A stretch of 64,000 nt of DNA from Streptantibioticus silvisoli (GTDB lineage: Bacteria > Actinomycetota > Actinomycetes > Streptomycetales > Streptomycetaceae), in contig NZ_JAAGKO020000006.1 of the NCBI RefSeq assembly GCF_027947535.2, positions 186,001-250,000 of the forward strand, read 5' to 3'. Below, piece after piece: positions 23,618 to 64,000 of this stretch. A program made the translations under genes and the position numbers. The first letter of the stretch is position 1. Each line of letters starts with the position of its first letter. Under the pieces are notes generated by a model. It saw nothing but the letters and a program-made list of their open reading frames with translations. It was not told the origin of the DNA and ran no database searches.

Positions 23618-24511
23618 TCAGGACATCGCACCGGCCCGCTGATCGGTGCGATGGCCCGCCGGCTGCGTGTCGGCACGGTCCCGGCTGTCCGGGCCCAACG
23701 GTGCCAGCAGCCCCCGCTGCGATGCGTGCGCCCCCGCCTGGAAGCGGGACTCGGCACCCAGCAGCGTCATGATCTCGGCCACGTACCGCCGGTAGGTGCG
23801 CACCGACACCTCCAGCTCGCGAGCGGCGACCTCGTCGGTCAGGCCCAGCCGCAGGCAGCTGAGGACCTGCCGGACGGTGTCGGAGCGGACCCGGTCGCCG
23901 AAGCAGATCCGGTCCGCGGTGACCGTGGAGCTCTTCCAGATGGTGTCGGCCAGTGAGCCCAGGGCCTGGATCACCGAGGGGGACCGGATCATCGAGGCCC
24001 GGACGCCGACGGAGGACTCCGCGCAGACGAGTGCCTCGCGGCGGTCGACGATCACCGCGGTGAGCGGGGCCATCGCGAAGATCCGCAACTTCAACGACCC
24101 GTCGGTGCCGGAGGCGCGTTCCGCCAGCTTCCGGTCGAGCGTGCCACGGGTGCATAACATGCGAACGGTGACCTGCTGCGATCCGGAGACCAGCAGGTCG
24201 CCCACCGCGGAGTTGACCGCGCGGGCGACGTTCGGATCGCCCGACAGCAGAACGTCGACCGACTCCTTCGCCTCCTTGATCATCTGCTTCGCCGAGGACG
24301 CCACCTCGCCGTCCTCGGCCCCCAGCACGCTGACCAGGGCGTCCCTCGTTATCCGGTCGCGGTGCCTGGCCATCATCCGGTCGATGAGCGAGCGGGCCTC
24401 CAGCAGGTCCTTCTCGAAGTCGTCGCTCACCTGGTCGAGCCGGTCGATCCGCGCGGACGGATCGTGGATGTCGCGGCCCGCGGTGTGTCTTGAAGTCGTC
24501 GAATCGTTCAC
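23618..24511 (-). CDS. LuxR-type pathway regulator with a TTA codon
   Basis: A protein of 297 residues. Residues 35-215 resemble the TrmB/sugar-phosphate-binding-like domain of actinomycete pathway regulators (LLEARSLIDRMMARHRD, VTVRMLCTRG, AVIVDRREALVC). The C-terminal HTH is LGLTDEVAARELEVSVRTYR then RYVAEIMTLLGAESRFQAG, a LuxR-like helix-turn-helix. Leu119 is encoded by TTA (24157-24155), so translation should depend on the bldA tRNA and follow development. GTG 24511 has GGAG. It is followed on the same strand by nothing for 260 bases and preceded by a paralogue 44 bases upstream. Likely cluster-situated regulator of the NRPS genes. Confidence 0.82.
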   Translation of the reverse strand: MNDSTTSRHTAGRDIHDPSARIDRLDQVSDDFEKDLLEARSLIDRMMARHRDRITRDALVSVLGAEDGEVASSAKQMIKEAKESVDVLLSGDPNVARAVNSAVGDLLVSGSQQVTVRMLCTRGTLDRKLAERASGTDGSLKLRIFAMAPLTAVIVDRREALVCAESSVGVRASMIRSPSVIQALGSLADTIWKSSTVTADRICFGDRVRSDTVRQVLSCLRLGLTDEVAARELEVSVRTYRRYVAEIMTLLGAESRFQAGAHASQRGLLAPLGPDSRDRADTQPAGHRTDQRAGAMS

Positions 24512-24555
24512 GCCCTGCTCCCTGCGCCGTGGTCGGGACTGTGGTCAACCTGGTC

Positions 24556-25353
24556 TCAGAGCACCTGTTGGCCGCATTCCGGAAGCAAACGCAGTTCGGC
24601 TGCCCGGACCCCCGCCTGGAAACGGGAGTTGACGCCGAGGTCGCGCATGATCTCCGCGACGTGCCGGCGGTAGGTGCGCAGTGACACGTTCATCTCCTGT
24701 GCGGCGACGGCGTCGGTGCGCCCGGCGTACAGGTGCTCCAGGATGCGCTGCCCCATGTCGGTGTGCAGCCGGCCGTCGAGCCGCTCGTACTCGTCGAGGA
24801 GCACCGCGCCGCGCCAGACGCAGGCGAACAGCAGTTCAAGGGTCCGGGCCGCTGCGGGGTCCTCCATCACCCGGCCGTTCACGTCGTCCTCCTGGGGCGC
24901 CCTGACCACCGCGGCCCTGCCGTCCATCATCAGGGCCTCGTCCAACTTGACGTCGGTGACCCGGACTTCGCAGTTCGGCACGCGGGGAACGATGTGCCGC
25001 ACCAGGGGCGTGCCGAGCGCCCTCGGCGCGCACAGCAGCCGGACGGCGACCGAACGGCCCCCGGCCCTGCTGCGGCGTACGAGTGCGGTCGCGATCTCGG
25101 TCGCCTGGTCCGCGTCGCCCGAGAGGGTCGCACTGACCCGCTGCCGCGCGCCGCCGACGAGGGTCAGGACGGGGCTCTCGCTGCTTTCGCGGTCGGATCC
25201 CGTATCGTCGCGGCCGCGCTGCGCCGACAGCGAGCGATAAGCGGTCACGGTCGAATCTATAAGTGACCGCGCCTCCAGAAGCCTTCGTTCGAAACCGTCC
25301 GGGGCTGCCTCGTTCGGATTGGCCCTGGAAAGCAATGCCGTGCTGGTTGCCAC
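24556..25353 (-). CDS. Second LuxR-type regulator, paralogue of the downstream gene
   Basis: A protein of 265 residues with the same plan as its neighbour: FERRLLEARSLIDSTV near the N-terminus, VAVRLLCAPRALGTPLV in the middle, and C-terminal HTH AGRTDAVAAQEMNVSLRTYR then RHVAEIMRDLGVNSRFQAG. The conserved spacing shows a tandem gene duplication followed by strong divergence. GTG 25353 is preceded by GGGGGAAAA; longer starts up to 25440 remain possible. It is probably transcribed together with the gene at 23618 from a promoter in the AT-rich DNA near 25400-25560. Confidence 0.8.
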   Translation of the reverse strand: MATSTALLSRANPNEAAPDGFERRLLEARSLIDSTVTAYRSLSAQRGRDDTGSDRESSESPVLTLVGGARQRVSATLSGDADQATEIATALVRRSRAGGRSVAVRLLCAPRALGTPLVRHIVPRVPNCEVRVTDVKLDEALMMDGRAAVVRAPQEDDVNGRVMEDPAAARTLELLFACVWRGAVLLDEYERLDGRLHTDMGQRILEHLYAGRTDAVAAQEMNVSLRTYRRHVAEIMRDLGVNSRFQAGVRAAELRLLPECGQQVL

Positions 25354-27092
25354 TTTTCCCCCACCCGTTGGGAATGCAAGCGAGCCCGGGGATACAGAAA
25401 ATCGCCGAGATCTCAGAGACATGGTCGATCGAATACTCACCGGTAGCCGAGGCTTCTCAGGCTCGGGGGTGAAGGCGACCTATCCTATGCCCGTCGCAGA
25501 CATTATCCATGCCACCTCTATCGAGTCAATGTGAGGGTGTTGGTGAATTATCAACGAACGGCAATCGGTCTATCACCGCACTTGTAGCGGTTCGGCTCCC
25601 CTGTCCCGAGTTGGCCGTTATGTCGCGGCGCGGGATTGGGGGTCTGGCAGTTTCCTGTTACGGGCATTGCCGGGCGGTGGGCGCCCGTATACCAGGGGAC
25701 GGATTGCAAAAACGATTCGGGCAACCGGCAAGATGGTCGCCGATCTTGCCCTCGAAGTGCCGGAATGGCTGTCGGGCGTGCCGACCTGCGGTATGAACGA
25801 GGTATGCGGCATACGCGGGGCGGCGGGCGCGGCGCTGAACATCGTCGGTTTCGCGCGCGGTTACGGACCGGGACGGGCTGTTCACCCGGGGCGAGCGAGT
25901 CCGGCGGCTTCCTGGGACCTGCGCATCGGTGACCGGTCGGTGCGGCGAGGGCGGCGGGCGCGGCAGAAGGCGGCCGGCCGGCCCGGCGGTCCCGGTGCCC
26001 GGCATCGTCGGTGAGGCCCGGCGAGCAGCTGCCCGACCCGCCTTGGAATGCACCGCTCGAAACCCGGTGGATTGGGGTTGGAATCGGTGCGCACGCGTTG
26101 CCCAAGCCGATGGCAAAACTCTGTTAACGGTATTCCTAAGTCGCAGGGGTAACCGCAAGGAAGGTCGACGGTGTACTCGTGGCGATGCCGCACGGACACC
26201 GTCGGGCTTCCGCGACGAGCGAATCGCCGTGAAGACGGGAACCTCGTCGTGAACACGGGAACCGCCCTCTTCCGGTTCCCCGGTCGCGCACGCCAATGCC
26301 CCGACGGGGATAGGCACATCGAGGCGGAACGGTTTCGGGCGCGGCGGGGGCGCCGCAACTGCGAGCCGGGAAAACCCGCGCCCGCGGGGAAGGGCGGCAG
26401 CGGCACCGAGAAGGGAAAATGCGGACGGCGAATGCCGAAAGGCACGCCGCTGAACAGCGGTGCCCGGCCGGAGGCAGAACCGGTCGATCCGCCCCGGAGG
26501 TTATCACCGTCGGACGGCACGCCCTGCCGCGGGTTCGATGGTCCGTGCGACCTCGCGCACGACGTGGCGACGGCGAGTGCGGCGTCCGGCCGGTTCGCCG
26601 GCAGCAAAAGGGGGCCGCACTCCCGGCGTGGCTGCTCCGACCGCCGCAGGTGTCGGGGAACGTATCGGGGTGACCGGCTTCCTTGCCGGCTCGAAGGGCG
26701 GCCCGGGCCGGGCTCGACGCGGAGATCGCGGCGTGCGCCGAGGTGCGATCACGTCGCGCCGACGGACCGCGTGCGCAAGAGGACCAGGGATGAACGCTCC
26801 CGGCGCGGACCGGCCGGCCGCGGCTCACCGCGCACCGGCGCCGCGGCCGGCATCAGGGACGGGTCACCTACGGCCGCGCGCTCTCCAGCCTCGGCGAGGC
26901 GCCGTGGCCCGCACCAGGGGCGGGCGTTCCGACGGCAGGTCCGGTCCCGCCGGGTGGGAGTGGTCCCGCCGGGTGGGAGCAGTGCTGCCTGCGGGCCGGG
27001 GCGCCGGTCCGGCCGGAGCGGCGCCCCCGCCCGCTCGTTCGAGGCGGCACCGCCGTCCTGCCGTCCGGCCCGGGGCGCCGAACGCCGGTGCG
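25354..27092. other. 1.7-kb region without a recognisable gene
   Basis: Open frames on both strands lack ribosome sites, families and normal codon bias. Bases 25400-25600 and 26080-26180 are less GC-rich and are the likely promoter zones, the former for the regulators. The rest shows no pseudogene I can name. Confidence 0.45.
26943..26979. repeat. 18-bp direct repeat, two copies
   Basis: GGTCCCGCCGGGTGGGAG occurs at 26943-26960 and again at 26962-26979. Each copy is itself a near-palindrome (TCCC...GGGA), so the pair could be a regulator site. It lies about 110 bases beyond the MbtH stop. Confidence 0.6.
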
Positions 27093-27299
27093 TCAGCCCA
27101 TCGCGTCCTGGAGGCTCTTGGGGCGCATGTCGGTCCAGTGCTCGGTGATGTGGTCCAGGCACGCCTGGCGGGGCGCCTCACCGAAGGCCACCCGCCAGCC
27201 GGCCGGCACCTCGATGAAGGACGGCCACAGCGAGTGCTGGAGCTCGTCGTTCACCAGGACGAGGAATGAACCGTTGTCGTCCTCGAATGGGTTGCTCAC
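27093..27299 (-). CDS. MbtH-like protein
   Basis: A protein of 68 residues with the MbtH signature: [33 protein letters not shown] and a C-terminal WTDMRPKSL. MbtH proteins bind adenylation domains of NRPSs and are needed for their folding or activity. It is the only one seen in the window, so it may serve all the NRPS genes from 37 kb onward. GTG 27299 follows GAGGGG. It lies 93 bases after the UbiB-like gene. Confidence 0.95.
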
Positions 27300-29654: not shown

Positions 29655-30443
29655 CTAACGCGCCGCGGCCCGCTGGTAGGCCCGGGCGGTGAGCGGTACC
29701 AGGACGATGAGCGCCACCCCGAGGGTCACGCAGGACACGAGCACCGGGTGCTGCGTCGGGAACGCGTTGTCGGTGACCAGGCCCTGGTTGGCCCACAGGT
29801 GGCGGCAGGAGGCGACGACGGAGCTGATCGGGTTCCACTCGGCGATCACCTGGAGCCACCGCGGCAGCCCGTTGAGCGGCACGAACGCGTTGGACAGGAA
29901 GATGAACGGCATCATCAGCAGCATCGCGACCGAGTTCACCGCCTCGGTGCTGCGGATCACCAGGCCGAGCAGCGCGCCCAGCCAGCACATGGTGAAGCCG
30001 AGCAGCAGCAGCAGCGCGAAGCCCGCGGCGGCCTGGAGGACGCCGTTGTGCGCGCGCCAGCCGATCAGCGCGCCGACCACCGCCATCACGACGCAGCTCA
30101 GCGAGGTCATCAGCAGATCGGAGACCGTCCGGCCCAGCAGCACCGCGAAGCGCGACATCGGCAGCGAGCGGAACCGGTCCACCAGTCCGTTGTGCAGGTC
30201 GCCGGAGACCCCGGCGGCGCTGGTGCCGACCGCCGAGAACATCACCTGGGTGAAGATGCCGGCCATGATGTACTCGCGGTAGTTCACCCCCGGCACCTGC
30301 ATGGCGCTGCCGAAGAGGTAGCCGAAGACCAGGACCAGCACGATGGGGCCGACCGTCACGCCGATCAGCTTCTCCGGGACGCGGGCGATGTGCCGCATGT
30401 GGCGCCCGGTCAGCGCCATGGTGTCGTACGCGAGACCGCTCAT
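29655..30443 (-). CDS. ABC-2 type exporter permease (DrrB-like)
   Basis: A protein of 262 residues with six membrane helices and the ABC-2 exporter pattern: GPIVLVLVFGYLFGSAM, NYREYIMAGIFTQVMFSA, GLVDRFRSLPMSRFAVLLGR and FVPLNGLPRWLQVIAEWNP, as in daunorubicin DrrB. Its ATG overlaps the stop of the ATPase (ATGA at 30443-30440). Together they probably export the cluster's peptide and may give self-protection. Confidence 0.93.
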   Translation of the reverse strand: MSGLAYDTMALTGRHMRHIARVPEKLIGVTVGPIVLVLVFGYLFGSAMQVPGVNYREYIMAGIFTQVMFSAVGTSAAGVSGDLHNGLVDRFRSLPMSRFAVLLGRTVSDLLMTSLSCVVMAVVGALIGWRAHNGVLQAAAGFALLLLLGFTMCWLGALLGLVIRSTEAVNSVAMLLMMPFIFLSNAFVPLNGLPRWLQVIAEWNPISSVVASCRHLWANQGLVTDNAFPTQHPVLVSCVTLGVALIVLVPLTARAYQRAAAR

Positions 30444-31411
30444 GCCTCGGACTCCTTCTCCTCGGTCGGCGTGCCGGCGTGGCCGGTGAGGCTCAGGAAC
30501 ACGTCGTCCAGCGAGGGCCGGCGGATCGCGAAGTCGGCCACACCGATGCCGGCCTCCCGCAACGCGACGGCCGCGTCGGCGATCGTGTCGATGCCCGAGT
30601 CGATCGTCGCGGAGATCCGCCGGTCCTCCTCGGCGACGACGGGTTCCCCCACCGCGACCTTGCTCAGCACCCGCGCGGCCTCGGCCAGTTCGCTGCGGAC
30701 CGCCACCGTCACCTCCAGGCGCTCGCCGCCGACCTTGTCCTTCAGGTCGTCGGGCGTGCCCTCGGCGATCACCGTGCCCTTGTCGATCACGGCGATCCGG
30801 TCGGCGAGGTGGTCGGCCTCCTCCAGGTACTGCGTGGTCAGCAGTACGGTGACGCCGCCGGTGACCTGCTCGCGGACGGTCTTCCACAGCGTCATCCGGC
30901 TGGTCAGGTCGAGTCCGGTGGTCGGCTCGTCCAGGAACAGCACCGACGGCTCCGCGAGCAGGCAGGCCGCCAGGTCCAGCCGCCGCCGCATGCCGCCCGA
31001 GTACGTCTTGACCCCGCGGTCGGCGGCCTCGACCAGTTCGAACCGCTCCAGCAGCTCCTCGGCCCGCGCCTTGGCACCCTTGCGGCCGAGACGGTGCAGT
31101 TTGCCGATCAGGACCAGGTTCTCCCGGCCGGTGAGCAGTTCGTCCACGGCGGCGTACTGCCCGGCCAGGCCGATCTGCCGGCGGACCTTCTGCGGGTCCT
31201 TCGCGACGTCGTACCCGGCGACCACGGCCCGGCCCTCGTCCGCCGCCAGCAGGGTGGCCAGGATCCGGACCGCCGTGGTCTTGCCCGCGCCGTTGGGGCC
31301 CAGCACGCCCATCACGGTCCCGGCCGGCACCGACAGGTCGATGCCGGCCAGCGCCTGATGGTCGCCGTAGCGCTTGCGCAGCCCCTCTGCCTCGATGGCA
31401 ACGTCGTTCAT
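30440..31411 (-). CDS. ABC exporter ATP-binding protein (DrrA-like)
   Basis: A protein of 323 residues: Walker A GPNGAGKTTAVR, signature YSGGMRRRLDLA, Walker B VLFLDEPTTGLD and H-loop LTTQYLEEADHLAD. The C-terminal 100 residues match the DrrA extension (RRPSLDDVFLSLTGH). ATG 31411 follows GAGGTGGG. It forms an operon with the permease. Confidence 0.95.
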   Translation of the reverse strand: MNDVAIEAEGLRKRYGDHQALAGIDLSVPAGTVMGVLGPNGAGKTTAVRILATLLAADEGRAVVAGYDVAKDPQKVRRQIGLAGQYAAVDELLTGRENLVLIGKLHRLGRKGAKARAEELLERFELVEAADRGVKTYSGGMRRRLDLAACLLAEPSVLFLDEPTTGLDLTSRMTLWKTVREQVTGGVTVLLTTQYLEEADHLADRIAVIDKGTVIAEGTPDDLKDKVGGERLEVTVAVRSELAEAARVLSKVAVGEPVVAEEDRRISATIDSGIDTIADAAVALREAGIGVADFAIRRPSLDDVFLSLTGHAGTPTEEKESEA

Positions 31412-31483
31412 ATGACCCACCTCATGGTTGTCGTCGGGTGTCCGCGCGGCGCGGGCCTCGCGGGAGTAGGGGAGGGCACCGGG

Positions 31484-33160
31484 TCAGCCGATCCGGGCCA
31501 GACCGCGGGCCGTGCGGCGCAGGGTGCCGCGGGAGACGGCGAGCGGATCCCAGTCCTCGGTCCGCTCGGGCAGCAGGTCGGGGTCGCCCAGCACGGTCCC
31601 GCTGTGCACCTCGTGCATCAGCCGGCGGCCGAGGATCTGTGCGGCGCAGGAGATGCCGCCCAGGGCGACTCCGGTGATGCCGCTGCCGTAGCGGGTGTTG
31701 GCGCCGACCACGTGCAGCCCCTGGACGGCGGTGCGGGTGTCCGGGCGGTTGCCCGCGCCACCCCAGTTCGCCAGTCCGAACGGGGTGCCGCCGGTGGAGA
31801 GGGTGTAGCGCTCGTGGGTCAGCGGTGTGGCCGCCTCCAAGTGCACGATGTGGTCGCGGAACGGCCCGATGGCCTCCTCGGCGGCGCTCAGCATCGCCTC
31901 GGTCAGCCGGGCCTTCTGCTCCTTGTACGTGGTCCGGCGGCGGTAGCGCCCGCCGGACGCCGGCCCCTCGGCCACGCCCCAGTGGTCGTAGCCGGACGGG
32001 CACATCGTCATGATCTGGAAGTTGCTGTGCCCGGGCGGGCAGACGGTGCGCGACCCCGGGTCCTTGAGGGACGCGAAGGACATGAACAGGAAGTCCACCG
32101 GGTCCAGGCCGCTGCCGGCCAGCCGGTCGTAGTAGGCGTTGATGTCGTCGCCCCGGTACCACCACAGGTTGGCGTTCGGGCGCGGCGGCAGTTCGGTGTC
32201 CAGCGCGACGTACAGCGTGGCGAACGGCAGCCCCATCGTCGCGTCGGCGGTCTTGGCGACCAGGCGGCGCGAGAAGTGTTCGGGGCCGACCAGGTCGAGC
32301 ACGGTGCGTCGGTAGTCCGCGTTGGAGACCACCAGCGGGGCCTTGAACGCACTGCCGTCCCGCAGACCGACGCCGGTCGCCTTGCCGTCCTCGACCAGGA
32401 TGCGCTCCACCGTGCAGCGGGTGCGCAGTTCACCGCCGTGCGCCTCGAGCGTCTCCACCAGGGCCGCCGCCAGCATCTGGCCGCCGCCCTCGGGGTAGTA
32501 GGCGCCGCGCACGTAGTGGTCGGTGACCGTGGCGTGCATGGCGACGCTCGCCTGGTCCGGGCCCATCCCGTAGTTGGGCGACTGGGCCGCGAGCACGGTC
32601 CTGGCCGGGACCGACAGGCCGCAGTGGTCGAACAGCTCGGTCAGGGTGCGGCGTCCCCACTGCACGGTGACCGGGGTGCGGGCGACGAGTTCGGTGATGG
32701 TCAGGTCGTGCGGCGACAGCAGTGCCTGGCGCATCTCCTCGCCGAGGCCGGAGACGACGTCCAGGAACAGGTCGATGCCGGGCCCGTCGGCCGGCAGCGC
32801 CTCCTTGAGCCGCTGCCGGTAGGCGGGCCAGCCGGCCGGCATGTCCATCGTGACGCCCGGGACGACGATCCGGTCGAAACCGCCCTGGTCCATCTCCCGG
32901 TACTGCACCCGCTTGTCGAGGCCGAGTCCCGCGAAGATCGCCGGCAGGATGCCGTCAGGGCCGCAGTCGCCGAGGTAATGCACCCCGACGTCGAATTCGT
33001 ACTTGCGGCGGCGGCGGAACACGTGGCTGTTCCCGCCGGCGACGTCGTGCTGCTCCAGGACCAGGACCCGGTGGCCGCCGACGGCCAGATAAGCCGCGCA
33101 GACCAGTCCGCCGAGTCCGGAGCCGACGACGATGGCATCCCATTCTTCCCGGTTCGACAT
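31484..33160 (-). CDS. Phytoene-desaturase/retinol-saturase-like FAD oxidoreductase
   Basis: A protein of 558 residues. The N-terminus is a Rossmann FAD motif: WDAIVVGSGLGGLVCAAYLA followed by VLVLEQHDVAGGNSHVFRR. The C-terminus has TALQ-like TAVQGLHVVGANTRYGSG, the second FAD contact of the carotenoid desaturase/isomerase family (CrtI, CrtISO, retinol saturase). Such enzymes desaturate, saturate or isomerise polyenes. In NRPS clusters, similar genes help build unsaturated or aryl acyl groups, so a role in tailoring a lipid or polyene part is a reasonable inference. ATG 33160 follows GGGAAG. The ketosynthase-like gene lies 100 bases upstream, and the ABC exporter is 72 bases downstream. Confidence 0.82.
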   Translation of the reverse strand: MSNREEWDAIVVGSGLGGLVCAAYLAVGGHRVLVLEQHDVAGGNSHVFRRRRKYEFDVGVHYLGDCGPDGILPAIFAGLGLDKRVQYREMDQGGFDRIVVPGVTMDMPAGWPAYRQRLKEALPADGPGIDLFLDVVSGLGEEMRQALLSPHDLTITELVARTPVTVQWGRRTLTELFDHCGLSVPARTVLAAQSPNYGMGPDQASVAMHATVTDHYVRGAYYPEGGGQMLAAALVETLEAHGGELRTRCTVERILVEDGKATGVGLRDGSAFKAPLVVSNADYRRTVLDLVGPEHFSRRLVAKTADATMGLPFATLYVALDTELPPRPNANLWWYRGDDINAYYDRLAGSGLDPVDFLFMSFASLKDPGSRTVCPPGHSNFQIMTMCPSGYDHWGVAEGPASGGRYRRRTTYKEQKARLTEAMLSAAEEAIGPFRDHIVHLEAATPLTHERYTLSTGGTPFGLANWGGAGNRPDTRTAVQGLHVVGANTRYGSGITGVALGGISCAAQILGRRLMHEVHSGTVLGDPDLLPERTEDWDPLAVSRGTLRRTARGLARIG

Positions 33161-33260
33161 TGAGGCTTCCCGTTCCTGTCTCATGGCTGGTGGCACCGTG
33201 ACACCGTGGCAGCAGGACCGGCCGGCACATCGGCGGCTGACCGGAACCTGCCACCGCGGT

Positions 33261-34370
33261 TCACAGGAGGCGTAGGAGGGCGGTGGCGAGGACGCCGTCG
33301 CGGTCGATGGCGGTGATGAGGGCGATGCGGTTGGGGGGTTGGGGGTGTTGTTGGTGGTGGCTGAGGAGGGTGGTGATCTGGAAGGTGGCGGTGGCGGCTG
33401 CGGTGTCGCCGATGGGGCCGGGTGCGGGGATGTGGTGGGGTGTGTGGTCGGTGAAGATGAGGTCGAGGGCGTTGCGTTCGTGGTCGGCGGTGGTGCCTGG
33501 TGGTGTGGAGGGGGAGACGGCCCAGATGTCGTGGGGGTTGAGGCGTGTTTGGTGGAGGGCGCGTTTGATGGTGTGGGCGAGGGTGGTGGTGATGTGGTGG
33601 GGGTGGGTGATGGCGGTGGTGATGCACAGGAGTTCGGCGAGTGGGTGGGGGTGGGTGCCGGGGGGTTGGAGTCGTAGGACGGCGCAGCCTTCTCCCAGGA
33701 CGGTGGCGTTTTCGTCGGGGTGTCGGGTGTGTCGTTCGAGCCAGGATCGGGCGGGGGAGTATTCCTCGGCGGCGCCGCACAGGATGGTGTGGGCGCGTCC
33801 GGCGGTGAGCAGGCGGCGGGCGTAGTTGAGGGCGAGCAGGCCGGAGGCGCGGCCGCCGGCCACGGTGGTGTTGGGGCCCTTGAGGCCGTACCAGATCGCA
33901 CACTGCCCCGCCGCACAGTTCATCACCGTGTTGGGGAACCGCCCGGGGTCGACGTGGAACGGCGCCTCGTTGATCCAGGTGTCGCGGGTGAGGTCCATCA
34001 TGGACTGGGCGCTGCCGGTGGTGGTGCCCAGGACCAGCGCCGCCACCTCCTCGTCGGCGAACGGGTCCCGCTGCCGCGTCTCGTCCCGCAGCAGTTCGCG
34101 TACGGCCGTGACGGCCAGGCCGGTGACCCGGTCCATCGACCGGGTCCCCTTCTTGCCCAGCACCTCGCGGACGTCGAAGTCCGGTACCAGGCAGGCGAGT
34201 TCGTCGGGGCCCGGCCACTTGTCGGTGTCCAGTACCGAGACGGTGGCGCGCCCGCTGCTCACCCCTTGGACGAAGGCGTCCCGCCCGATCCCGTACGGCG
34301 AGACCGCCGACCACCCGGTGATGACCGGACCACGCACCTGATCGGGCACCGCGATGCCCATCGCGCTCAC
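33261..34370 (-). CDS. Ketosynthase-like protein without the catalytic triad (CLF-like)
   Basis: A protein of 369 residues with the thiolase fold of beta-ketoacyl-ACP synthases: VITGWSAVSPYGIGRDAFVQ at the start and CAIWYGLKGPNTTVAGGRAS in the middle. The active Cys of TACASG is replaced: the sequence is AGGRASG (Arg). The first His (AHGTGT) aligns with SPSTPPGT, and the second (GHTLGA) with IGDTAAA. All three catalytic residues are therefore lost, as in chain-length factors of type II PKSs. No partner ketosynthase or ACP gene is in the window. GTG 34370 has GGAG at 10 bases. The 3' half (33261 to about 33830) is unusually rich in CAC/ACC codons, with a His/Thr/Pro-rich product. Confidence 0.78.
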   Translation of the reverse strand: MSAMGIAVPDQVRGPVITGWSAVSPYGIGRDAFVQGVSSGRATVSVLDTDKWPGPDELACLVPDFDVREVLGKKGTRSMDRVTGLAVTAVRELLRDETRQRDPFADEEVAALVLGTTTGSAQSMMDLTRDTWINEAPFHVDPGRFPNTVMNCAAGQCAIWYGLKGPNTTVAGGRASGLLALNYARRLLTAGRAHTILCGAAEEYSPARSWLERHTRHPDENATVLGEGCAVLRLQPPGTHPHPLAELLCITTAITHPHHITTTLAHTIKRALHQTRLNPHDIWAVSPSTPPGTTADHERNALDLIFTDHTPHHIPAPGPIGDTAAATATFQITTLLSHHQQHPQPPNRIALITAIDRDGVLATALLRLL

Positions 34371-34505
34371 AGCAGACCCACTCCTCATCGGTAGAAGACG
34401 CCCGGCGCGATCGGCGCCCGCCGCCCGGGCCGTATCCGGGGACCCGCCGAGCGGTCCCGGTGGCCCCGGGCCGGTGCCCGGGGCGCCACGCTCACGTCCG
34501 GCGGC

Positions 34506-34910
34506 TCACAGGAAGAACACCGCGCGGTAGCCGGACCACCGGGCGGCCATCGATCCGCCCGGCACGCTCCGCACGCCGGGCAGCAGGCTGTCCTCACCGG
34601 CCAGCCCGTACGCCAGCAGGTCCGGCTCCTCCGCCCACACCCCGACCCCGGACTCCAGCAGCACGCTCAGGCCCTGCCCGGGCTCGGTACCGGTGCTGAA
34701 GGTCGTCCCGCCCAGTCGCAGCGGGGGCGTTCGGGCGGCGCGGGCCGCGTACCCGACGGCCGGGCCGCGCAGCAGCACGTCCAGACCGCCGAGGTGGCGG
34801 TGGAAGAGGAAGGCGCAGTAGAGCGCGTCGGAGAACTGCGTCTCCACGGTGCCCCGGTAGGCGCGTTCGACGATCGCCAGGGCGCGGGTGGACTCGGCCG
34901 CCGTCATCAC
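34506..34910 (-). CDS. DsrE-superfamily small protein (TusC/DsrF-like), third of three
   Basis: A protein of 134 residues. It has the DsrE-type opening of a helix rich in Ala/Leu around VETQFSDALYCAFLFHRHLG followed by GLDVLLRGPAVGYAAR and ends with a hydrophobic strand (YRAVFFL). A single Cys sits in the SDALYCAF helix. GTG 34910 overlaps the stop of the preceding gene (GTGA), so the two are translationally coupled. The family assignment rests on the fold-like pattern and on its two neighbours; taken alone it would be uncertain. Confidence 0.55.
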   Translation of the reverse strand: MMTAAESTRALAIVERAYRGTVETQFSDALYCAFLFHRHLGGLDVLLRGPAVGYAARAARTPPLRLGGTTFSTGTEPGQGLSVLLESGVGVWAEEPDLLAYGLAGEDSLLPGVRSVPGGSMAARWSGYRAVFFL

Positions 34911-35314
34911 ATCACCCCCAGGTAGAGCGTCTTGCCGGCCGCCGCCACGTGTTCGGCGAACTTCGCCGGCGCCCGGGTCGGGACCTGCTCGATGTGCGCG
35001 ACGGCCCCGCGGTCGTCACTGCAGAACCGGCAGGCGAACCAGTGCAGCCGGCCGGGGAAGGCCGCCAGCATGTCCTGCACGACCGCCGCCATCGACGGGT
35101 ACGCAGTGGACCACGCCGCCAGGTTGCGCGGCTTGCTGTCGCCGAGGCCCTGTTGCGTGAGCATGGTGGCGTACCCGCACGCCCAGACCTGTACGGTCGC
35201 CCCGCTCTCCAGCAGCGCCTGGGACAGCCGGAGCACACTGGTGATCAGGTCGCTCTCGTGCGGCGCGCCCATCACCGTCAGCAGCACGTCGGTCTGCGGA
35301 ACCCGTGTCGGCAT
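34907..35314 (-). CDS. DsrE-family protein (TusD/DsrE-like), second of three
   Basis: A protein of 135 residues. It starts with a strand and dinucleotide-like loop (DVLLTVMGAPHESDLITSVL), then LSQALLESGATVQVWACGYA and LHWFACRFCSDDRGAVAHIE. The CxxC-like ACRFC pair and the Cys in VWACGY are possible persulfide carriers, as in DsrE/TusD. The last residues LYLGVM form the final strand. ATG 35314 lies one base after the upstream stop. It is bracketed by two other DsrE-like genes. Confidence 0.65.
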   Translation of the reverse strand: MPTRVPQTDVLLTVMGAPHESDLITSVLRLSQALLESGATVQVWACGYATMLTQQGLGDSKPRNLAAWSTAYPSMAAVVQDMLAAFPGRLHWFACRFCSDDRGAVAHIEQVPTRAPAKFAEHVAAAGKTLYLGVM

Positions 35315-35315
35315 G

Positions 35316-35681
35316 TCAGTGCCACACCACCCTCACGTCCGGCTCCAGCAGACGCGCGGAGACCTCGGCCATGTCCACGATCCGTGCCGTCGGCAGCAGT
35401 TGAGCGGCGCACAGCCCGCGCTGGGTGAGCGAGAAGTCGTCCACCAGGACCTCCGCCCCGGCCGCCGCGGCCTCCCGGGCACTCCACGGTGCCGCGCCCA
35501 CCGCGGCGCCGACGCCCTCCTGGATCAGCAGCAGCTGCACCCGGTGCCCGAGCCGGGCCAGGTCGCGGGCGTCGCGCAGGAATCCGGCGTCGGCGCCCCC
35601 GGCCCCGGGTCCCTGGCTCTCTATCAGCAGATGGGGAGTTGCGCCGGGTGGCCGGACGCCCTGTCCCGCTTCCTCGTTCAC
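35316..35681 (-). CDS. DsrE-family protein (TusB/DsrH-like end), first of three
   Basis: A protein of 121 residues: HLLIESQGPGAGGADAGFLR, ARDLARLGHRVQLLLIQEGV, VLVDDFSLTQRGLCAAQLLP and final VRVVWH. This order (amphipathic helix, LLLIQEGV strand, RGL-C turn, terminal VVWH) is characteristic of small DsrE/TusB proteins. GTG 35681 is chosen because GGAGGG lies 10 bases upstream; ATG 35699 is the alternative. With the two following genes it gives three DsrE-like subunits, like TusBCD/DsrEFH, which form a sulfur-relay hexamer in other bacteria. The link to sulfur here is inference. Confidence 0.65.
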   Translation of the reverse strand: MNEEAGQGVRPPGATPHLLIESQGPGAGGADAGFLRDARDLARLGHRVQLLLIQEGVGAAVGAAPWSAREAAAAGAEVLVDDFSLTQRGLCAAQLLPTARIVDMAEVSARLLEPDVRVVWH

Positions 35682-35812
35682 AGACCCGCTGCCCTCCATC
35701 ACTCATCGGTCGGTGTGCGGCACGACCCGGCCGCCAGGGGTCAGCATCGCGGCGGCCGGCGGCGCGGCCCAGGGGCGTTGCATGGTCCTGCCAGAACCGG
35801 CCGGGTGAGCCC

Positions 35813-37041
35813 TCAGCGGGCGGGTACCGCGACGACCGGCAGCTTCGAGGCGCCGATCATGTCGCTGGTGTCCAGGAAGGTGACCGGCCGGTCGCGGTCG
35901 ACCGTCAGCCGGGCGTACCGGTCGAGCAGCAGGTCGAACACGATCCGCGCCTCCAGCCGCGCCAGCGGGGCGCCGATGCAGAAGTGGATGCCCTGGCCGA
36001 AGCCGATGTGCCGGTTCGGCGTGCGGTCGATGTCGAAGTGCTCGGGGTCGGGGAAGTACGTCTCGTCCCGGTTGGCCGCCGAGATCCAGACCTTCATGAA
36101 CGACCCGGCCGGGATGAACTGGCCGCCCAGCTCCGTGTCCTCGCCGGTCATCCGGATGAAGCTGCTGAACGACGGGCGCACCCGCATGATCTCCTCGACG
36201 GCCTGCGTCACCAGCGTGCGGTCGGCCCGCAGCCGGGCCCACTCCTCGGGGCGGCGGTCGAAGCTCAGCACGATGTTGCCGATCAGCGCCGCCGTGGTGG
36301 TGATGCCGGCGATCAGCATCAGGCCGACGAAGCCCACGATCTCGTCGTCGGCCAGCCGGCGTCCCTCCACCTCGGCGGCGATCAGCAGGCTGATGACGTC
36401 GTCCTGCGGATCGGCCCGCCGCTTGCGGATCTGGCCGAAGATGTAGGTGTTCATCGAACGCATGTTCTTCGCCGCGTTGTTCAGGCCCTCCACGCTGGCG
36501 CCACCGGTGTGCAGCAGTTCGGCCCACTGGGCGAACAACTTCAGGTCCGACTGCTCGGCGCCGAGGATGGCCGCGATCACCGTGGCCGGGAGCGGGAAGG
36601 CGATCGCCTCGGCGAAGTCGAACCGCTCCTGGCCGGCGACGGCGTCGACCAGTTCGGCGGCGACCCGGGTCACCCGCTCCTCCATGCCCGCGATGTACCG
36701 GGCGCTGAAGACCTTGTTGACCAGCTGGCGGAACTGCCGGTGCCGCGGCTCGTCCATGGCCGCGATGTTGCCCTTGAAGAACACGTCGTAGTCCGGGTGC
36801 GGCGGCGTGATCGAGGACAGGTCGCTGACGAACACGTTCGGGTTCGACAGCACGTGCACGATCTCCTCGCGCCCGAACACCGACCAGCTGCCGTTCGACG
36901 GGTCGAAGCTGACCGGCTCGTTGTCCCGCATGTGCCGCAGCCACTCGAAGAACTCCGCCTGGGGCTCGGAGTCCGCCGGATCAGCGGCCGAGTGCCCCAC
37001 CGGGCACCGCGCGAGGCCCTCGTCCACTGTCCCGTTCCCGT

Positions 37042-37045
<4 letters not shown>
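35813..37045 (-). CDS. Cytochrome P450
   Basis: A protein of 410 residues with the CYP fold: the ExxR helix EEIMRVRP, the PxxF-type segment [18 protein letters not shown] and the heme loop [18 protein letters not shown] with the ligand Cys. The I-helix reads [16 protein letters not shown], where the usual acid of AGxxT (E or D) is Thr. That acid normally guides protons to oxygen, so the enzyme may have an altered reaction. It is the only P450 in the window; NRPS-D starts 4 bases downstream with ATGA overlap (37045-37042). It may hydroxylate or couple residues of the peptide. Confidence 0.93.
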
Positions 37046-41046
<4,001 letters not shown>

Positions 41047-41072
41047 GGTCGTCTCCTCGGTTGTCTCCGGGA

Positions 41073-48218
<7,146 letters not shown>

Positions 48219-48220: not shown

Positions 48221-56091
<7,871 letters not shown>

Positions 56092-56095
<4 letters not shown>

Positions 56096-56170
56096 GCGGG
56101 GTTCCTCCACTCGGATTCCAACACGTCGATTTCGGCCTGTGACAGCGACACCAGCGGAAGGCCCCCGAGG
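56092..56170 (-). pseudogene. 3' end of a lost or rearranged NRPS gene (E-domain tail)
   Basis: Reading minus, the last codons before TGA (56094-56092) encode [20 protein letters not shown] then RNPA. NRPS-A ends [18 protein letters not shown] at 61046, so this is the end of a gene of the same kind. The TGA overlaps the ATG of NRPS-B (ATGA), a coupling expected of a genuine upstream NRPS gene. Further upstream a second frame reads [19 protein letters not shown], like the next-most C-terminal part of NRPS-A with a deletion and frameshift, so the remnant may reach about 56225. The rest of the gene is absent here; the intervening DNA to 61 kb is unrelated. Confidence 0.7.
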
Positions 56171-56706: not shown

Positions 56707-57915
56707 ATGACCACCCCCGCCGGCCACATCGCCTTCTTCTGCATACCGTCGTCCGGACACTTCAACCCGACCGTGCCCATGGTGTCCGAACTGGTCCGAC
56801 GCGGACACCGGGTCAGTTACGCCACGACCGCCGACTTCGCCCCCGAGGTGGCCGCGGCCGGTGCCGAACCCGTCGTGTGCACTTCCGTCCTGCCGTCCAC
56901 CCAACGCGGAGTGCCGTGGCCCATCGGGGACACGGTGGCCATGTCCGACCTCTATCTCCAGGAGGCGATCGTCTCGCTGCCGGAGCAGGCGGCCGCTTTC
57001 GAAGCCGACCGTCCCGACCTGATCGTCTACGACTGCCTGTCCTTCACCGCGCAGGTCCTGGCCCGGCGCTGGGGAATCCCCTCGGTGCGCACCCTGCCGA
57101 CCCATGAGTTCGGGCCGGACATCTGGGACGAGATGGAAGTACTGGACCTCATGCTCGAGGAGGAACCGGGGTGGCACGTCTACCGCCGGGCGTTCCGGGA
57201 GTTCCTGGACGCCGCCGGAATCGAACTCGGCATTGACGAGTTCATCTACCGCGGCCACGCCGACCGTTATCTGGTGACCATTCCGCGGGAGTTCCAGAAG
57301 GACGCCGACCGGATCGAGGACCGCTTCACCTTCGTCGGGCACTGCATCGACGAGCGGCGCGCCGGCGAGCAGTGGGAGCGCCCCGCCGACGGCCGGCCGC
57401 TGCTGCTGGTCAGCATGGGCTCGGCGCTGAGGGTCGACCCGGACTTCTACCGGTTGTGCGTGGAGGCGTTCGGCGGCTCGCGGTGGCAGGTGGTGCTCGT
57501 CGTGGGCGGCAAGGCCGACCCGGACGCCTTCGGCGACGTGCCGCCCAACTTCGAACTCCACGCCTTCGTACCGCAGTTGAGTGTACTGTCGCAAGCATCG
57601 GCCTTCGTCACGCACGGCGGGATGGGAGGCACGCTGGAGGGGCTGTACCACGGCGTCCCCATGGTCGTCCTGCCCCAGGTGTTCGACGCGTTCGGCAACG
57701 CCGCGCTGCTCGAGCGGCTGGGCGTCGCCGTGAGTTTCACCGTCGACGACCTCACGGCGCATCAGCTGCGCGACGCCGTCGAGTCGCTGGTTGCGGATCA
57801 GGCGGTGGCCGGGCGGCTGGCCGAACTGCGGACCGCGATGCGCGCGGGCGGCGGCCCGGCCGCCGCCGCCGACGTCATTGAGGAATGCCTCCGCAACGTG
57901 GTTGCCGCACAGTAG
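56707..57915 (+). CDS. Macrolide-type UDP-glycosyltransferase (MGT, GT1 family)
   Basis: A protein of 402 residues with GT-B fold. N-terminal acceptor side starts GHIAFFCIPSSGHFNPTVPM; the C-terminal donor signature is ASAFVTHGGMGGTLEGLYHG then VPMVVLPQVFDAFGNA. This matches OleD/OleI and Mgt, which attach glucose to macrolides and other phenols or alcohols. In an NRPS cluster it could glycosylate the product or inactivate it inside the cell for self-protection. It lies on the opposite strand to the NRPS genes. ATG 56707 has a poor ribosome site (AGGGA at two bases). Confidence 0.88.
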   Translation: MTTPAGHIAFFCIPSSGHFNPTVPMVSELVRRGHRVSYATTADFAPEVAAAGAEPVVCTSVLPSTQRGVPWPIGDTVAMSDLYLQEAIVSLPEQAAAFEADRPDLIVYDCLSFTAQVLARRWGIPSVRTLPTHEFGPDIWDEMEVLDLMLEEEPGWHVYRRAFREFLDAAGIELGIDEFIYRGHADRYLVTIPREFQKDADRIEDRFTFVGHCIDERRAGEQWERPADGRPLLLVSMGSALRVDPDFYRLCVEAFGGSRWQVVLVVGGKADPDAFGDVPPNFELHAFVPQLSVLSQASAFVTHGGMGGTLEGLYHGVPMVVLPQVFDAFGNAALLERLGVAVSFTVDDLTAHQLRDAVESLVADQAVAGRLAELRTAMRAGGGPAAAADVIEECLRNVVAAQ

Positions 57916-59608: not shown

Positions 59609-59728
59609 AAGATCAATTATCAGACAAGCTCTAGTACCGCAACGGCGTTCGCGGTTGCCGTACTGGGGCCTGCCCCGGGTGCCGCCCGCCGTGACCCACC
59701 CGGCACGTCCTGGGAGCAGCACGCGACG

Positions 59729-59766
59729 AGGCCGGGTGGACGCCGAAATCCGGGTCCACCCGGCCT
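59729..59766 (-). terminator. 13-bp hairpin beyond the hydrolase gene
   Basis: Arms 59729-59741 and 59754-59766 pair perfectly around a 12-base loop. It lies 55 bases past the stop of the minus-strand hydrolase gene, and could also have terminated the DUF3995 gene before the IS inserted. Confidence 0.65.
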
Positions 59767-59820
59767 TCCGCTGTCGGGGGTGGGCGGTGCGCGGCCCCGG
59801 GTGGGCGGGCCGGCCGGCCG

Positions 59821-61045: not shown

Positions 61046-64000
61046 TCAGGACCATTCGGATTCCAGCAGGTCGATCTCGCCCTGCGACAACGACACCAGC
61101 GGAAGGTCCGAAGGCGTCCAGCCGCTGGCCCCCGTCCGGCCGACGTGCGCGGTCAGCGCGTCGAGGGCGTCGAACCAGGCACCGGCCAGGTCGCGGACAT
61201 CGTGCTCGGCGAGCACCCCGTCCGGCCAGGACCACACCGCTTCCAGCCGCGGCCCGTCCGGGGTGTCGCGGGTCACCGCGTTCACTTCGAGGACGTGTGC
61301 CAGCGGCATCCGCGCGTCGGCGCCCGCGCCCAGCACGTCCGCCAGCGGGTCCGCCGTCCACTCCGGCACCCGCGGGCCCTGCGGCGCGTCGAAGCGGCCG
61401 AGGTAGTTGAACGAGATCTGCGGCCCGGGCCGGCCGGCGAGCGCCGCGGCGGTGCGGGGGTTGAGGTGGCGTAGCAGCCCGTAGCCGAGGCCGTTGTCCG
61501 GCAGGGCGCGCAGCTGCTCCTTGATCCGCTTGAGCGCGTCGCCCGCCGCGGGGCCGCCGGACCGGACCTCGGCCAGGTCCAGGTGGCCCGGGTCGAGCCG
61601 TACCGGGAACAGGCTGGTGAACCAGCCGACCGTACGGGACAGGTCCACCCCGTCGGCGAACTCCTCCCGGCCGTGGCCCTCCAGGTCCAGCAGCACCGCG
61701 GTGTCGTCGCCGCCCCCGTGCCGCCGCCGCCAGCTGCCGACCGCGAGCGCGAGCGCGGTCAGCAGCACGTCGTTGACCCCGGCGTTGAACGCGCCCGGGA
61801 CGGTGGTCAGCACCGGTGCGGTCCGCTCCGGTGCCAGGCGGAGCGTGAGCGAGCGGGCGCTGCCGGCGGTGTCCTTCGCGCCGTCCAGCGCACGGCTGCC
61901 GAGCAGTGGTTCACGGTGGTCCGTCATCGCGGTCCACAGCGGGAGTTCGGCGATCCGGGCCGGGGCGGCGGCGGAGGCCGTCAGGTGCTCGGCCCAGCGG
62001 CGGAAGGAGGTGCCGACCGGCTCCAGCCGCGCCGCGCGACCGTCACGCGCCGCCTCCCACGCCTCGGCGAGGTCGGGCAGCAGGATGCGCCAGGAGACGC
62101 CGTCCACCACCAGGTGGTGCAGTGCCAGCAGCAGCCGCCCGGGCCGGTCGGGTCCGGCGTCGAACCACACCGCCCGGACCATCCGGCCCGCCTCGGGGTC
62201 GAGCCGGTCGAGCGCCTCGTCCGTCCGCGCCCGGACCAGGGCGGCCAGCTCGTCGCCATCCGTCGACCCGGCGTCCACCCGCGTCACGCACCCGTCCGCC
62301 GTGACGGCGCCGCGCGGGAGGACCTCCAGCGCCCAGGTGCCGTCCGCCGGACGGCCCAGCCGCATCCGCAGGGCGTCGTGGTGGTCGAGCAGCGTGCCGA
62401 GGGCCGCCGTGATCCGCTCCCCGCCCAGGCCGGCCGGCACCCGGATCAGTGTCGTCTGGCTGAAGCGGCCGACCGGGCCGCCGCGTCCGTGCTGCCACGC
62501 GATGATCGGGGTGAGCGGGACCGGTCCGGTGCCGGCGTCCGGATCCGCGCCGCGAGGGTCGGCGGCGGCCCCGTCCGGCACGGTCGCCGCGCGGGCCAGC
62601 GCCTCGACCGTGCGGTGCCGGAACACGTCGCGCGGGGTGAAGACCAGACCGGCCCTGCGGGCGGCGCTGACCAGCTGGATGGAGGCGATGCTGTCGCCGC
62701 CGAGGTCGAAGAAGGCGTCGTCCGGGCCCACGTCGGGCAAGCCGAGCACCTGCGCGAAGACCTCGCAGAGGACACGCTCGCGCTCGGTGCCCGGCTTGCG
62801 GCCCGCACCGGTCCCGCCGCCGTCCGGCGCGGGCAGCGCCTCGCGGTCGAGCTTGCCGTTCGGCGTCAGCGGCAGCTCGTCCAGCGCCACGAGCGCGGAC
62901 GGCACCATGTAGTCCGGCAGCGCCTGTGCCGTCTCCTTGCGCAGGACGCCCAGGTCGGGGTGCGCCGCGCCGGACGCGGGCACCACGTAGCCGACCAGCC
63001 TGCGCTGTCCCGGCCGGTCCTCACGGACCACGACCACGCTCTCCCCGACCCCTTCGTGCCGGGCCAGCACGGCCGCCACCTCGGCCAGTTCGATACGGAA
63101 GCCGCGGATCTTCACCTGTCCGTCGGCACGCCCGGCGTACCGCAGCTCCCCGTCCGCCGTCCACGCCACGATGTCGCCGGTGCGGTACATCCGCGATCCG
63201 GCGGGACCGAACGGGTCGGCGACGAAGCGCTCGCCGGTCAGCGCGGGCCGGCCCAGGTAGCCGCGGGCCAGGCCGTCGCCCGCGATGTACAGATCGCCCG
63301 GCACACCGTCGGGCACCGGCCGCAGGCCGTCGTCCAGCACGTACACGCGGGTGTTGCGCACCGGGCGGCCGATCGGCGGGGCGGCGGGCGAGGGGGCGAG
63401 CGGGGCACTGGTGGTGGCCGCGACCGTGGACTCGGTGGGCCCGTACGCGTTGACCATCCGCCGCCCGGCCGACCAGCGCGCCACGAGCTCCGCCGAGCAC
63501 GCCTCCCCGCCGACGATGAGCGTGCGCAGGGCGGGCAGGCCGACGGCCGGCACGCTGGCCAGCGCGGCGGGCGGGATCAGCGCGTGCGTCACCGCGTCGC
63601 GCTCCAGCACCTCGGCCAGCGGCTCCCCGGCCAGGGGGCCCGGCGGCGGCACCACGAGCGCGGCGCCGGCCGGCAGCGCCATGCACACCTCCAGCACGGC
63701 CGCGTCGAAGCTCGGGGAGGAGAACTGCAGGACGCGGCTGTCGGGCGTGACGAAGAAGCGGTCCACCGCGCTGGCGGAGAAGGCGGCGATGCCCCGGTGC
63801 GTCACGGCCACGCCCTTGGGCGTGCCGGTGGAGCCCGAGGTGTAGATCACGTACGCCGGGTGGTCCACGCTCAGCGGCGCGGTGCGCTCGGCGTCCGTCA
63901 CGTCGTGGTCCGGCCGCTCGGACAGGCGCGCGGCCAGGGGGTCGTCCAGCACCAGCAGGCCGGGTCCGTCGGCCGGCAGGTCGCGGCGTGCGTCATCGGT
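61046..64000 (-). CDS. NRPS-A (partial): A-PCP-E, 5' end outside window
   Basis: The coding frame runs to the right edge. Visible: the adenylation core ([20 protein letters not shown] near 63845), then [14 protein letters not shown] (near 62700), then an epimerisation domain ([12 protein letters not shown] near 62110; [14 protein letters not shown]). The A-domain residue code read by eye is D-A-L-L-I-G-A-V-A, close to aromatic (Tyr/Phe-type DAL..GAV) codes, though not exact. The module should load and epimerise this residue before passing it to NRPS-B, whose first C domain is of the D-accepting type. The tail [18 protein letters not shown] is a short docking-like end, repeated in the relic at 56092. 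Confidence 0.95.

What the first reader, a model, noticed from the sequence alone, without database searches (positions are those of the whole stretch)
31484..35681. Cassette of dead ketosynthase, FAD polyene enzyme and three DsrE-like genes inside an NRPS cluster
Five consecutive minus-strand genes encode three small DsrE/TusBCD-like proteins, a ketosynthase-like protein and a phytoene-desaturase-like FAD enzyme, flanked by a P450/NRPS and an ABC exporter. I know of no described pathway with this set. In TusBCD/DsrEFH the three subunits relay sulfur through persulfides; here they could relay sulfur to a peptide, or have been recruited as a scaffold. The gene order and overlaps are seen; the function is inferred.
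Basis: partly seen in the sequence, partly recalled or inferred. Interest (0 to 1): 0.72.

Follow-up and report, generated by a model that had tools for sequence, protein, structure and literature searches.

The report
Sulfur-relay lookalikes that close benzene rings
Three small genes that look like a bacterial sulfur-relay complex sit in a peptide-making gene cluster beside a duplicated dead ketosynthase partner, and because they appear to be relatives, gene for gene, of the three proteins reported to close the benzene ring of the peptide kitacinnamycin, they are predicted to do that here rather than move sulfur.

Summary
In detail: five minus-strand genes at 31484-35702 encode three DsrE-like proteins (D1, D2, D3), a dead ketosynthase and a CrtI-like flavoenzyme. 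The set recurs, but the pathway is not new. [quoted passage not shown] The "dead KS" is a second copy (94.7% identical DNA) of that PKS's chain-length factor. D1-D2-D3 correspond to Kcn19, Kcn18 and Kcn17 of kitacinnamycin, whose cluster I found through a glycosyltransferase identical to Kcn28 in the PDB. A paper states that Kcn17-18-19 perform the 6pi-electrocyclic closure of the benzene ring. In 394 family genomes D2 occurs in 35; all 35 have this PKS's KS and 34 its isomerase (the other assembly is cut). Sulfur relay is unlikely: D1 and D3 have no conserved cysteine, and no DsrC/TusE was found in the genome. Open: the three invariant cysteines of D2, the flavoenzyme's job, and what closes the ring in the 40 of 74 KS-and-isomerase genomes where no D2 was found. 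A new member of a known kind, with a little-noticed fold link.

The parts
35316..35702 (-). D1, DsrH/TusB-like protein, 128 aa; counterpart of Kcn19
   Evidence: PF04077 E 6.6e-4, under the cut-off; family profile to DsrH 2hy5_C E 0.088 and TusB-type 2d1p_C E 0.17; 44% to gene 19 of the kcn cluster; not modelled
34907..35314 (-). D2, DsrE/YchN-like protein, 135 aa; counterpart of Kcn18; invariant Cys46, Cys95, Cys98
   Evidence: AF2 pLDDT 91.3; Foldseek YchN 3.1e-6, DsrEFH chain A 1.3e-5; Cys in 44 of 44 and in 115, 114 and 114 of 115; 63% to gene 18
34506..34910 (-). D3, DsrF/TusC-like protein, 134 aa; counterpart of Kcn17
   Evidence: Profile to 1l1s E 0.0019; AF2 pLDDT 86.8; Foldseek YchN 3.6e-6, DsrEFH and TusBCD chains; 47% to gene 17
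33261..34388 (-). Chain-length-factor type ketosynthase homologue (CLF_Q), second copy; Arg-Ser-Asp in place of Cys-His-His
   Evidence: 94.7% DNA identity over 1092 bp to the CLF of the PKS operon, L048 6444-7532; active site; PDB 6kxd_B E 5e-80
33251..33740 (.). Strongly strand-skewed 3' part of the CLF gene, shared with the other copy
   Evidence: GC skew up to 0.74; the only segment over 0.5 (150-base windows) in the window; partner at L048 6421-6930
31484..33160 (-). CrtI/phytoene-desaturase-like FAD enzyme, 558 aa
   Evidence: TIGR02734 E 9.3e-37, below its cut-off; PF01593 over its cut-off; close homologues within 60 kb of the same PKS KS in 27 of 44 genomes
30440..31420 (-). ABC exporter ATPase, DrrA type
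   Evidence: PF00005, PF13732
29655..30443 (-). ABC-2 membrane protein
   Evidence: PF01061; gene
35813..37045 (-). Cytochrome P450
   Evidence: PF00067 E 9.7e-34
37042..41076 (-). NRPS, C-A-T-TE
41073..48218 (-). NRPS, two modules and TE
48221..56110 (-). NRPS, two A domains, three C domains
61046..63952 (-). NRPS piece at the window end, next to the NRPS and PKS operon of L048
27393..29339 (-). ABC1/UbiB-like kinase gene, also next to the trio in kcn (gene 16, 46% identity)
   Evidence: PF03109 E 2.5e-61
27093..27299 (-). MbtH-like protein
   Evidence: recurrent family in 19 of 45 stretches, the window included; name from its sequence, no family search
23618..25440 (-). Two adjacent LuxR-type regulators, as described for other cinnamoyl clusters
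   Evidence: PF00196: one over the cut-off, one just under; homologues in 19 of 45 stretches, the window included; PMC9381841 on such pairs

Best explanation
The three small genes encode DsrE-like proteins that are homologues, gene for gene, of what by gene count are Kcn19, Kcn18 and Kcn17 of the kitacinnamycin cluster, and they are predicted to form a heteromeric cyclase that would close the benzene ring of a cinnamoyl group likely made by the type II polyketide synthase encoded just beyond this window. Proposed order of steps: KS/CLF, KR and DH build an acyl-carrier-bound polyene (known family roles); the DsbA-type isomerase turns one double bond to cis (stated for YsfG in PMC9381841); D1-D2-D3 bind the polyene and promote 6pi-electrocyclisation (stated for Kcn17-18-19 in PMC9321520, inferred here); oxidation gives the benzene ring (agent unknown); the NRPS takes the cinnamoyl group as its N-cap (inferred from cluster type). 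The dead KS is a second copy of the non-catalytic chain-length partner of the PKS. The FAD enzyme likely oxidises the polyene, the cyclised intermediate or the acyl group, and is not needed for ring closure in general, since no match was found in the 80 kb around kcn. Shown here: fold of D2 and D3, homology, synteny, active-site loss, PKS operon, co-occurrence. Not shown: any activity of these proteins.
For: The own contig beyond the window holds AT, ACP, KS, KS, CLF, hydrolase, thioesterase-like, CLF, ACP, DH, DH, KR and isomerase in that order. A Kitasatospora cluster has a glycosyltransferase that matches Kcn28 (PDB 6j31) residue for residue over 396. Published landmarks are Kcn4 ACP, Kcn14 KR, Kcn21-23 NRPSs with nine modules, Kcn27 P450, Kcn28 GT (passages of PMC6510318 and PMC9321520). 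Between KR and the first NRPS my gene calls give six genes, as the numbers demand, and the third, fourth and fifth are D3, D2, D1. PMC9321520 states that Kcn17-18-19 catalyse the 6pi-electrocyclic ring closure. In 394 genomes D2 was found in 35; 35 of 35 also have the PKS KS and 34 of 35 the isomerase, the exception being cut at a contig end. Of 28 genomes with the KS but no isomerase found, only that one has D2. In most named loci the trio lies inside or against the PKS genes.
Against: The primary report (Shi 2022, JACS 144:7939) is not held; I saw one sentence about it and its title. Homology is moderate (44, 63 and 47%). 40 of 74 genomes with both KS and isomerase have no D2 found, so ring closure would have to be done otherwise there; in the epoxinnamide cluster, too, no Kcn17-19 homologue was found by its authors (PMC9321520). 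The paper calls kcn7 a KS; my gene 7 is of CLF type. L014, L031 and L036 have the trio with no full PKS within the fetched stretch. Co-occurrence counts genomes, not independent events, and the search scored only the best few candidates per genome.
Confidence: 0.84

Rival explanations
1. The trio is a true sulfur relay: D2 carries a persulfide on Cys95 and hands sulfur to the peptide or acyl chain.
For: DsrE fold of D2 and D3; D2 keeps a CxxC...RG motif aligned with YchN and three invariant Cys. The genome has a TusA-family protein.
Against: D1 and D3 have no conserved Cys; no DsrC/TusE found in the genome while the E. coli control rings; D2 goes with polyene-PKS genes in the 394 genomes; Kcn17-18-19 are stated to be a cyclase (PMC9321520).
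Confidence: 0.05
2. The trio is a scaffold or docking complex that holds ACP, isomerase or CLF, and the ring closes unaided or on another enzyme.
For: Next to ACP, CLF or DH genes of the PKS in 13 of 14 regions fetched by place, and next to the CLF in 35 of 42 named loci; electrocyclisations of trienes can run unaided (established chemistry). No D2 was found in 40 of 74 KS-and-isomerase genomes.
Against: The published sentence assigns catalysis to Kcn17-18-19 (PMC9321520); invariant polar residues and Cys in D2 suggest an active site.
Confidence: 0.08
3. The trio supplies thiol or persulfide chemistry to the DsbA-like cis-trans isomerase, that is, it helps isomerisation rather than cyclisation.
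For: 34 of 35 D2 genomes carry the isomerase; actinomycetes use mycothiol, not glutathione (established), so a thiol partner is conceivable.
Against: In 40 KS-and-isomerase genomes no D2 was found. The statement on kcn puts the trio at ring closure (PMC9321520).
Confidence: 0.03

Closest known systems
Kcn17-Kcn18-Kcn19 of the kitacinnamycin cluster
   Same: Three consecutive genes of the same three families in the same order, in a CCNP cluster with the same PKS operon; trio outside that operon in both
   Different: 44, 63 and 47% identity; in kcn the trio follows the isomerase and an ABC1-kinase gene on the other strand, with no CLF copy beside it and no match to the FAD enzyme in the 80 kb examined
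DsrEFH and TusBCD sulfur-transfer complexes
   Same: Fold of D2 and D3, three-subunit set, DsrH/TusB-like D1 by weak match; D2 has Cys at the place of the YchN CxxC
   Different: No conserved Cys in D1 or D3, no DsrC/TusE found in the genome, polyene-PKS context
gla cluster of Streptomyces globisporus C-1027 (globisporamic acid)
   Same: The gene letters whose roles the paper gives (D-G, J, K, Q-V) fit the order in L043 and L044, with N, O, P at the place of D1, D2, D3 and Q (CLF1) at that of the dead KS (PMC9381841, section read)
   Different: L043 and L044 have an extra acyltransferase gene after the CLF; the text I read does not say what GlaN-P are, so the match is by position only
Chain-length factors of polyene type II PKSs (PDB 6kxd chain B, named 'Ketosynthase'; recalled as the ishigamide CLF Iga12)
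   Same: Full-length match E 5e-80 to the dead KS
   Different: Here a second copy, parked beside the trio

Membership tests
CCNP biosynthetic gene cluster | NRPS genes clustered with an intact type II PKS: KS, KR, DH, ACP and isomerase (PMC6510318) | tested here: met
   All found on the own contig, L048 plus window
CCNP biosynthetic gene cluster | Product is a peptide capped with a cinnamoyl group | not testable with these tools
   Needs metabolite analysis
Kcn17-18-19-type cyclase | Homologues of all three subunits, adjacent and in order | tested here: met
   that genes 17-19 are Kcn17-19 rests on gene counting in a cluster identified by Kcn28
Kcn17-18-19-type cyclase | Occurs with an isomerase-bearing polyene PKS | tested here: met
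   34 of 35 genomes, the other cut; own genome included
Kcn17-18-19-type cyclase | 6pi-electrocyclisation to the benzene ring | not testable with these tools
   Stated for kcn (one sentence, PMC9321520); no assay here
DsrEFH/TusBCD sulfur relay | DsrE fold in the subunits | tested here: met
   D2 and D3 by structure; D1 by weak profile match only
DsrEFH/TusBCD sulfur relay | Sulfur-carrying Cys in the DsrE/TusD subunit | tested here: inconclusive
   D2 Cys95-x-x-Cys98 aligns with the YchN CxxC; equivalence to DsrE Cys78 is recalled, not computed
DsrEFH/TusBCD sulfur relay | Conserved Cys in the DsrH subunit (recalled as a DsrH trait) | tested here: not met
   No conserved Cys in 40 D1 sequences; the commonest Cys column has 13 of 40
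DsrEFH/TusBCD sulfur relay | DsrC/TusE acceptor in the genome | tested here: not met
   PF04358: 0 matches in G000; of the 14 control genomes E. coli rings. Assembly 98% complete, 130 contigs
Type II PKS chain-length factor | KS-fold protein lacking the catalytic Cys-His-His | tested here: met
   Cys replaced by Arg in 36 of 36; first His by Ser in 29 and Cys in 5; second His by Asp in 33
CrtI phytoene desaturase | Score above the family cut-off | tested here: not met
   TIGR02734 126.8 bits against 238.1; TIGR02730 carotenoid isomerase 133.7 against 586.9

The most novel reading that the evidence does not exclude
A sulfur-relay complex has been turned into a benzene-making enzyme: the DsrEFH/TusBCD fold became a heteromeric pericyclase, and the three invariant cysteines that D2 keeps work as a redox centre that takes two electrons from the cyclised ring, so that one complex both closes and aromatises it.
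Probability: 0.2. Interest if true: 0.75.

Novelty: new member of a known kind. Interest (0 to 1): 0.42.

Why it matters
It gives the odd five-gene set a pathway and a testable job, and ties a reported benzene-ring cyclase to the sulfur-relay fold. That link says where to look for the active site (the subunit with three invariant cysteines), gives a search handle for benzene-forming polyene PKS clusters, and sets them apart from the 40 of 74 KS-and-isomerase genomes in which no D2 was found and which would need another way to close a ring. If the cysteines prove redox active, a fold known for moving sulfur would be doing carbon-ring chemistry.

Tried and rejected
Sulfur relay to the peptide: rejected on cysteines, missing DsrC/TusE and context. 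FAD enzyme as an obligate part of the cassette: rejected; it follows the trio in 7 of 42 named loci, has no match in the 80 kb around kcn, and of its 21 copies within 6 kb of the PKS KS, 10 are in genomes where no isomerase was found. FAD enzyme as the alternative cyclase where the trio is missing: not supported as a rule, since both occur in several genomes, but not excluded for L114-like clusters.

Literature: DsrE with nonribosomal peptide, phytoene and ketosynthase (0 papers), cinnamoyl with type II polyketide, nonribosomal peptide and phytoene, skyllamycin with cinnamoyl and phytoene dehydrogenase, and DsrE with biosynthetic gene cluster, Streptomyces and cyclization (unrelated by title) gave no paper that links DsrE-like proteins to cinnamoyl synthesis. 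Further listings. The held library lacks the two key JACS papers, so the fold link may be in print there. Seen: PMC9381841 abstract, passages and one section; PMC9321520, PMC6510318, PMC10054270 and PMC12664062 passages; PMC13311259 passages and two sections; PMC9230751 searched for terms, none found; the rest search listings only. A D3 homologue, P0173, in a record of Streptomyces sp. SANK 60404 might belong to the mbg benzene-forming cluster; could not settle it.
Full report
What is there. The window is G000:C87:186001-250000 of an 8.7 Mb genome. Minus-strand genes run P450 (35813-37045), D1 (35316-35702), D2 (34907-35314), D3 (34506-34910), a KS-like gene (33261-34388), a FAD enzyme (31484-33160), an ABC ATPase and an ABC permease.

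Families. Single-sequence Pfam gives D1 a weak DsrH match (E 6.6e-4, under the cut-off) and D2 and D3 none; Pfam's DsrE model finds one other protein in the own genome and none of the trio. Of 27 D2 relatives, 10 match PF02635 DsrE at E 0.1 or better (best 0.0072), and of 31 D3 relatives 3 do at E 1 or better (best 0.024). Profiles against the PDB give D1 to DsrH and a TusB-type chain (E 0.088 and 0.17), D2 to YchN (0.021) and D3 to MTH1491 (0.0019). AlphaFold models (pLDDT 91.3 for D2 and 86.8 for D3) match YchN, DsrEFH and TusBCD chains, the best at about 3e-6. So the DsrE fold is well supported for D2 and D3 and rests on weak sequence matches for D1, which was not modelled.

Residues. D2 keeps Cys46, Cys95 and Cys98 in 44 of 44 sequences and in 115, 114 and 114 of 115; Cys95-x-x-Cys98...Arg-Gly aligns with the same motif in YchN (a weak alignment, E 0.021). 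D1 and D3 have no conserved cysteine (at most 13 of 40 and 12 of 43).

The set recurs. A pattern scan of 84,980 species genomes with a D2 alignment gave 42 confirmed loci, a lower bound. D2 and D3 are adjacent in 42 of 42. D1 is seen in 40 by tblastn, in a 41st (L022) as a called gene of the D1 cluster, and L035 starts inside the set. The dead KS follows D3 in 35 of 42; of the other seven, two end there (L005, L045), two have another KS-CLF pair (L033, L042), and three have neither (L014, L031, L036). A KS of the polyene PKS lies within the fetched stretch in 28 of 42. The usual layout is ACP-KS-KS-CLF-hydrolase-thioesterase-like-D1-D2-D3-CLF-ACP-DH-DH-KR-isomerase, often with MbtH and NRPS after it (families). 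In the window's own group (L007-L013) the trio and a CLF sit apart, between a P450 or GT and the FAD and ABC genes. A first search of 61 relatives found D2 in 3, the own genome included.

The pathway. The own contig past the window (L048) holds that same operon without the trio: AT, ACP, KS (79% to L019), KS, CLF, hydrolase, thioesterase-like, CLF, ACP, DH, DH, KR, DsbA-type isomerase, then NRPS. [quoted passage not shown] The window cluster meets that definition.

The dead KS. It is 94.7% identical over 1092 bp to the CLF in L048. All 36 CLF_Q sequences have Arg for the catalytic Cys, while 27 of 27, 27 of 27 and 10 of 10 of the three KS types keep Cys-His-His. The best PDB match is chain B of 6kxd, which I recall as a CLF. 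I asked for six related genomes and five were searched: G061-G064 have two or more copies, one beside the trio and one in the operon; G065 has one. So it is a second chain-length factor.

The link to kitacinnamycin. Genome G168 has the trio 2.4 kb past the isomerase. I read 80 kb there. The protein of its gene 28 matches PDB 6j31, Kcn28, residue for residue over 396 in the printed alignment. The papers give Kcn4 as ACP, kcn14 as KR, kcn4-15 and kcn33 as the PKS-like set, Kcn21-23 as NRPSs with nine modules, Kcn27 as P450 and Kcn28 as GT (passages). In my gene calls these fall on the same numbers, gene 33 is a second isomerase, and the NRPSs have nine A domains. The printed numbers start at a cut that I chose, and that they agree from 4 on is partly luck; but anchored on KR = 14 and first NRPS = 21, six genes must lie between, six do, and the third to fifth are D3, D2, D1. 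One landmark is loose: the paper calls kcn7 a KS, and my gene 7 is of CLF type. Identities to the window are 47, 63 and 44%. PMC9321520 says that Kcn17-18-19 and YssX catalyse the 6pi-electrocyclic ring closure, citing Shi 2022, and that the epoxinnamide cluster has no homologue. I did not see Shi 2022 itself.

Co-occurrence. In 394 genomes of the family (a sample; the tool scored only the best few candidates in each, so absences are less sure than presences), D2 is in 35, the isomerase in 79 and the PKS KS in 102. All 35 D2 genomes have the KS and 34 the isomerase. The exception, G067, has its PKS operon cut off at a contig end before the isomerase. Of 28 genomes with the KS but no isomerase found, only G067 has D2; of 74 with both, 34 have D2 and in 40 none was found. 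Fisher's test for D2 and isomerase gives 6e-26, without correction for kinship. Of 37 D2 copies, 21 lie within 12 kb of the KS, 9 within 60 kb, 1 further off and 6 on another contig. In the 14 regions that I fetched by place, chosen by hand, 13 have PKS genes next to the trio; L106, of the window's own group, has only the CLF.

Sulfur relay. Besides the missing cysteines, no DsrC/TusE was found in the genome (E. coli rings as control), though it has a TusA-family protein. A persulfide on D2 is not excluded, but no acceptor for it is seen.

The FAD enzyme. It is related to CrtI but under that family's cut-off. Close homologues occur in 44 of 394 genomes, within 60 kb of the PKS KS in 27 and within 6 kb in 21, of which 10 are in genomes with no isomerase found. 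In Virgisporangium it directly follows the isomerase (L066). No match lies in the 80 kb around kcn. I infer an oxidation of the polyene or the acyl group, not ring closure itself.

Verdict. Observation confirmed; interpretation partly right. The set is the ring-closing and chain-length part of a cinnamoyl peptide cluster. What I could not find in print, within the searches named under Tried and rejected, is that the cyclase trio has the DsrE fold.

Noticed in passing
33251-33740 and L048 6421-6930: The 3' halves of the two CLF copies are the only strongly strand-skewed segments (GC skew over 0.5 in 150-base windows, up to 0.74) in the window and the two flanks read, and are nearly identical (446 of 450 bases over six blocks of 75), while a stretch before them differs more. 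They resemble the skewed repeats called GRINS in polyketide genes (name recalled; paper not held) and suggest gene conversion. The PKS-operon CLF of Streptomyces sp. H39-S7 has one too (L065 10921-11390).
   Followed up: partly
27393-29339: An ABC1/UbiB-like kinase gene recurs beside these clusters: in 8 of 42 named loci and as gene 16 of the kcn cluster (46% identity), next to the trio there. Its role in peptide clusters is unexplained.
   Followed up: partly
37042-48218: Two successive NRPS genes each carry a C-terminal thioesterase domain.
   Followed up: no
58719-60960: A transposase piece and an alpha/beta hydrolase gene lie between NRPS genes, next to a plus-strand glycosyltransferase gene (56707-57915).
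   Followed up: no
L099 and L100 (G368); G089: Two of the 394 genomes carry two separate D2 genes; in G368 both are in trios, one beside a different KS-CLF pair with no isomerase in the 20 kb fetched.
   Followed up: partly
L114 (G406) 4788-7164: An isomerase-bearing PKS operon with the FAD gene directly after the isomerase and no D2 found in the genome: a place to look for another ring-closing route.
   Followed up: no
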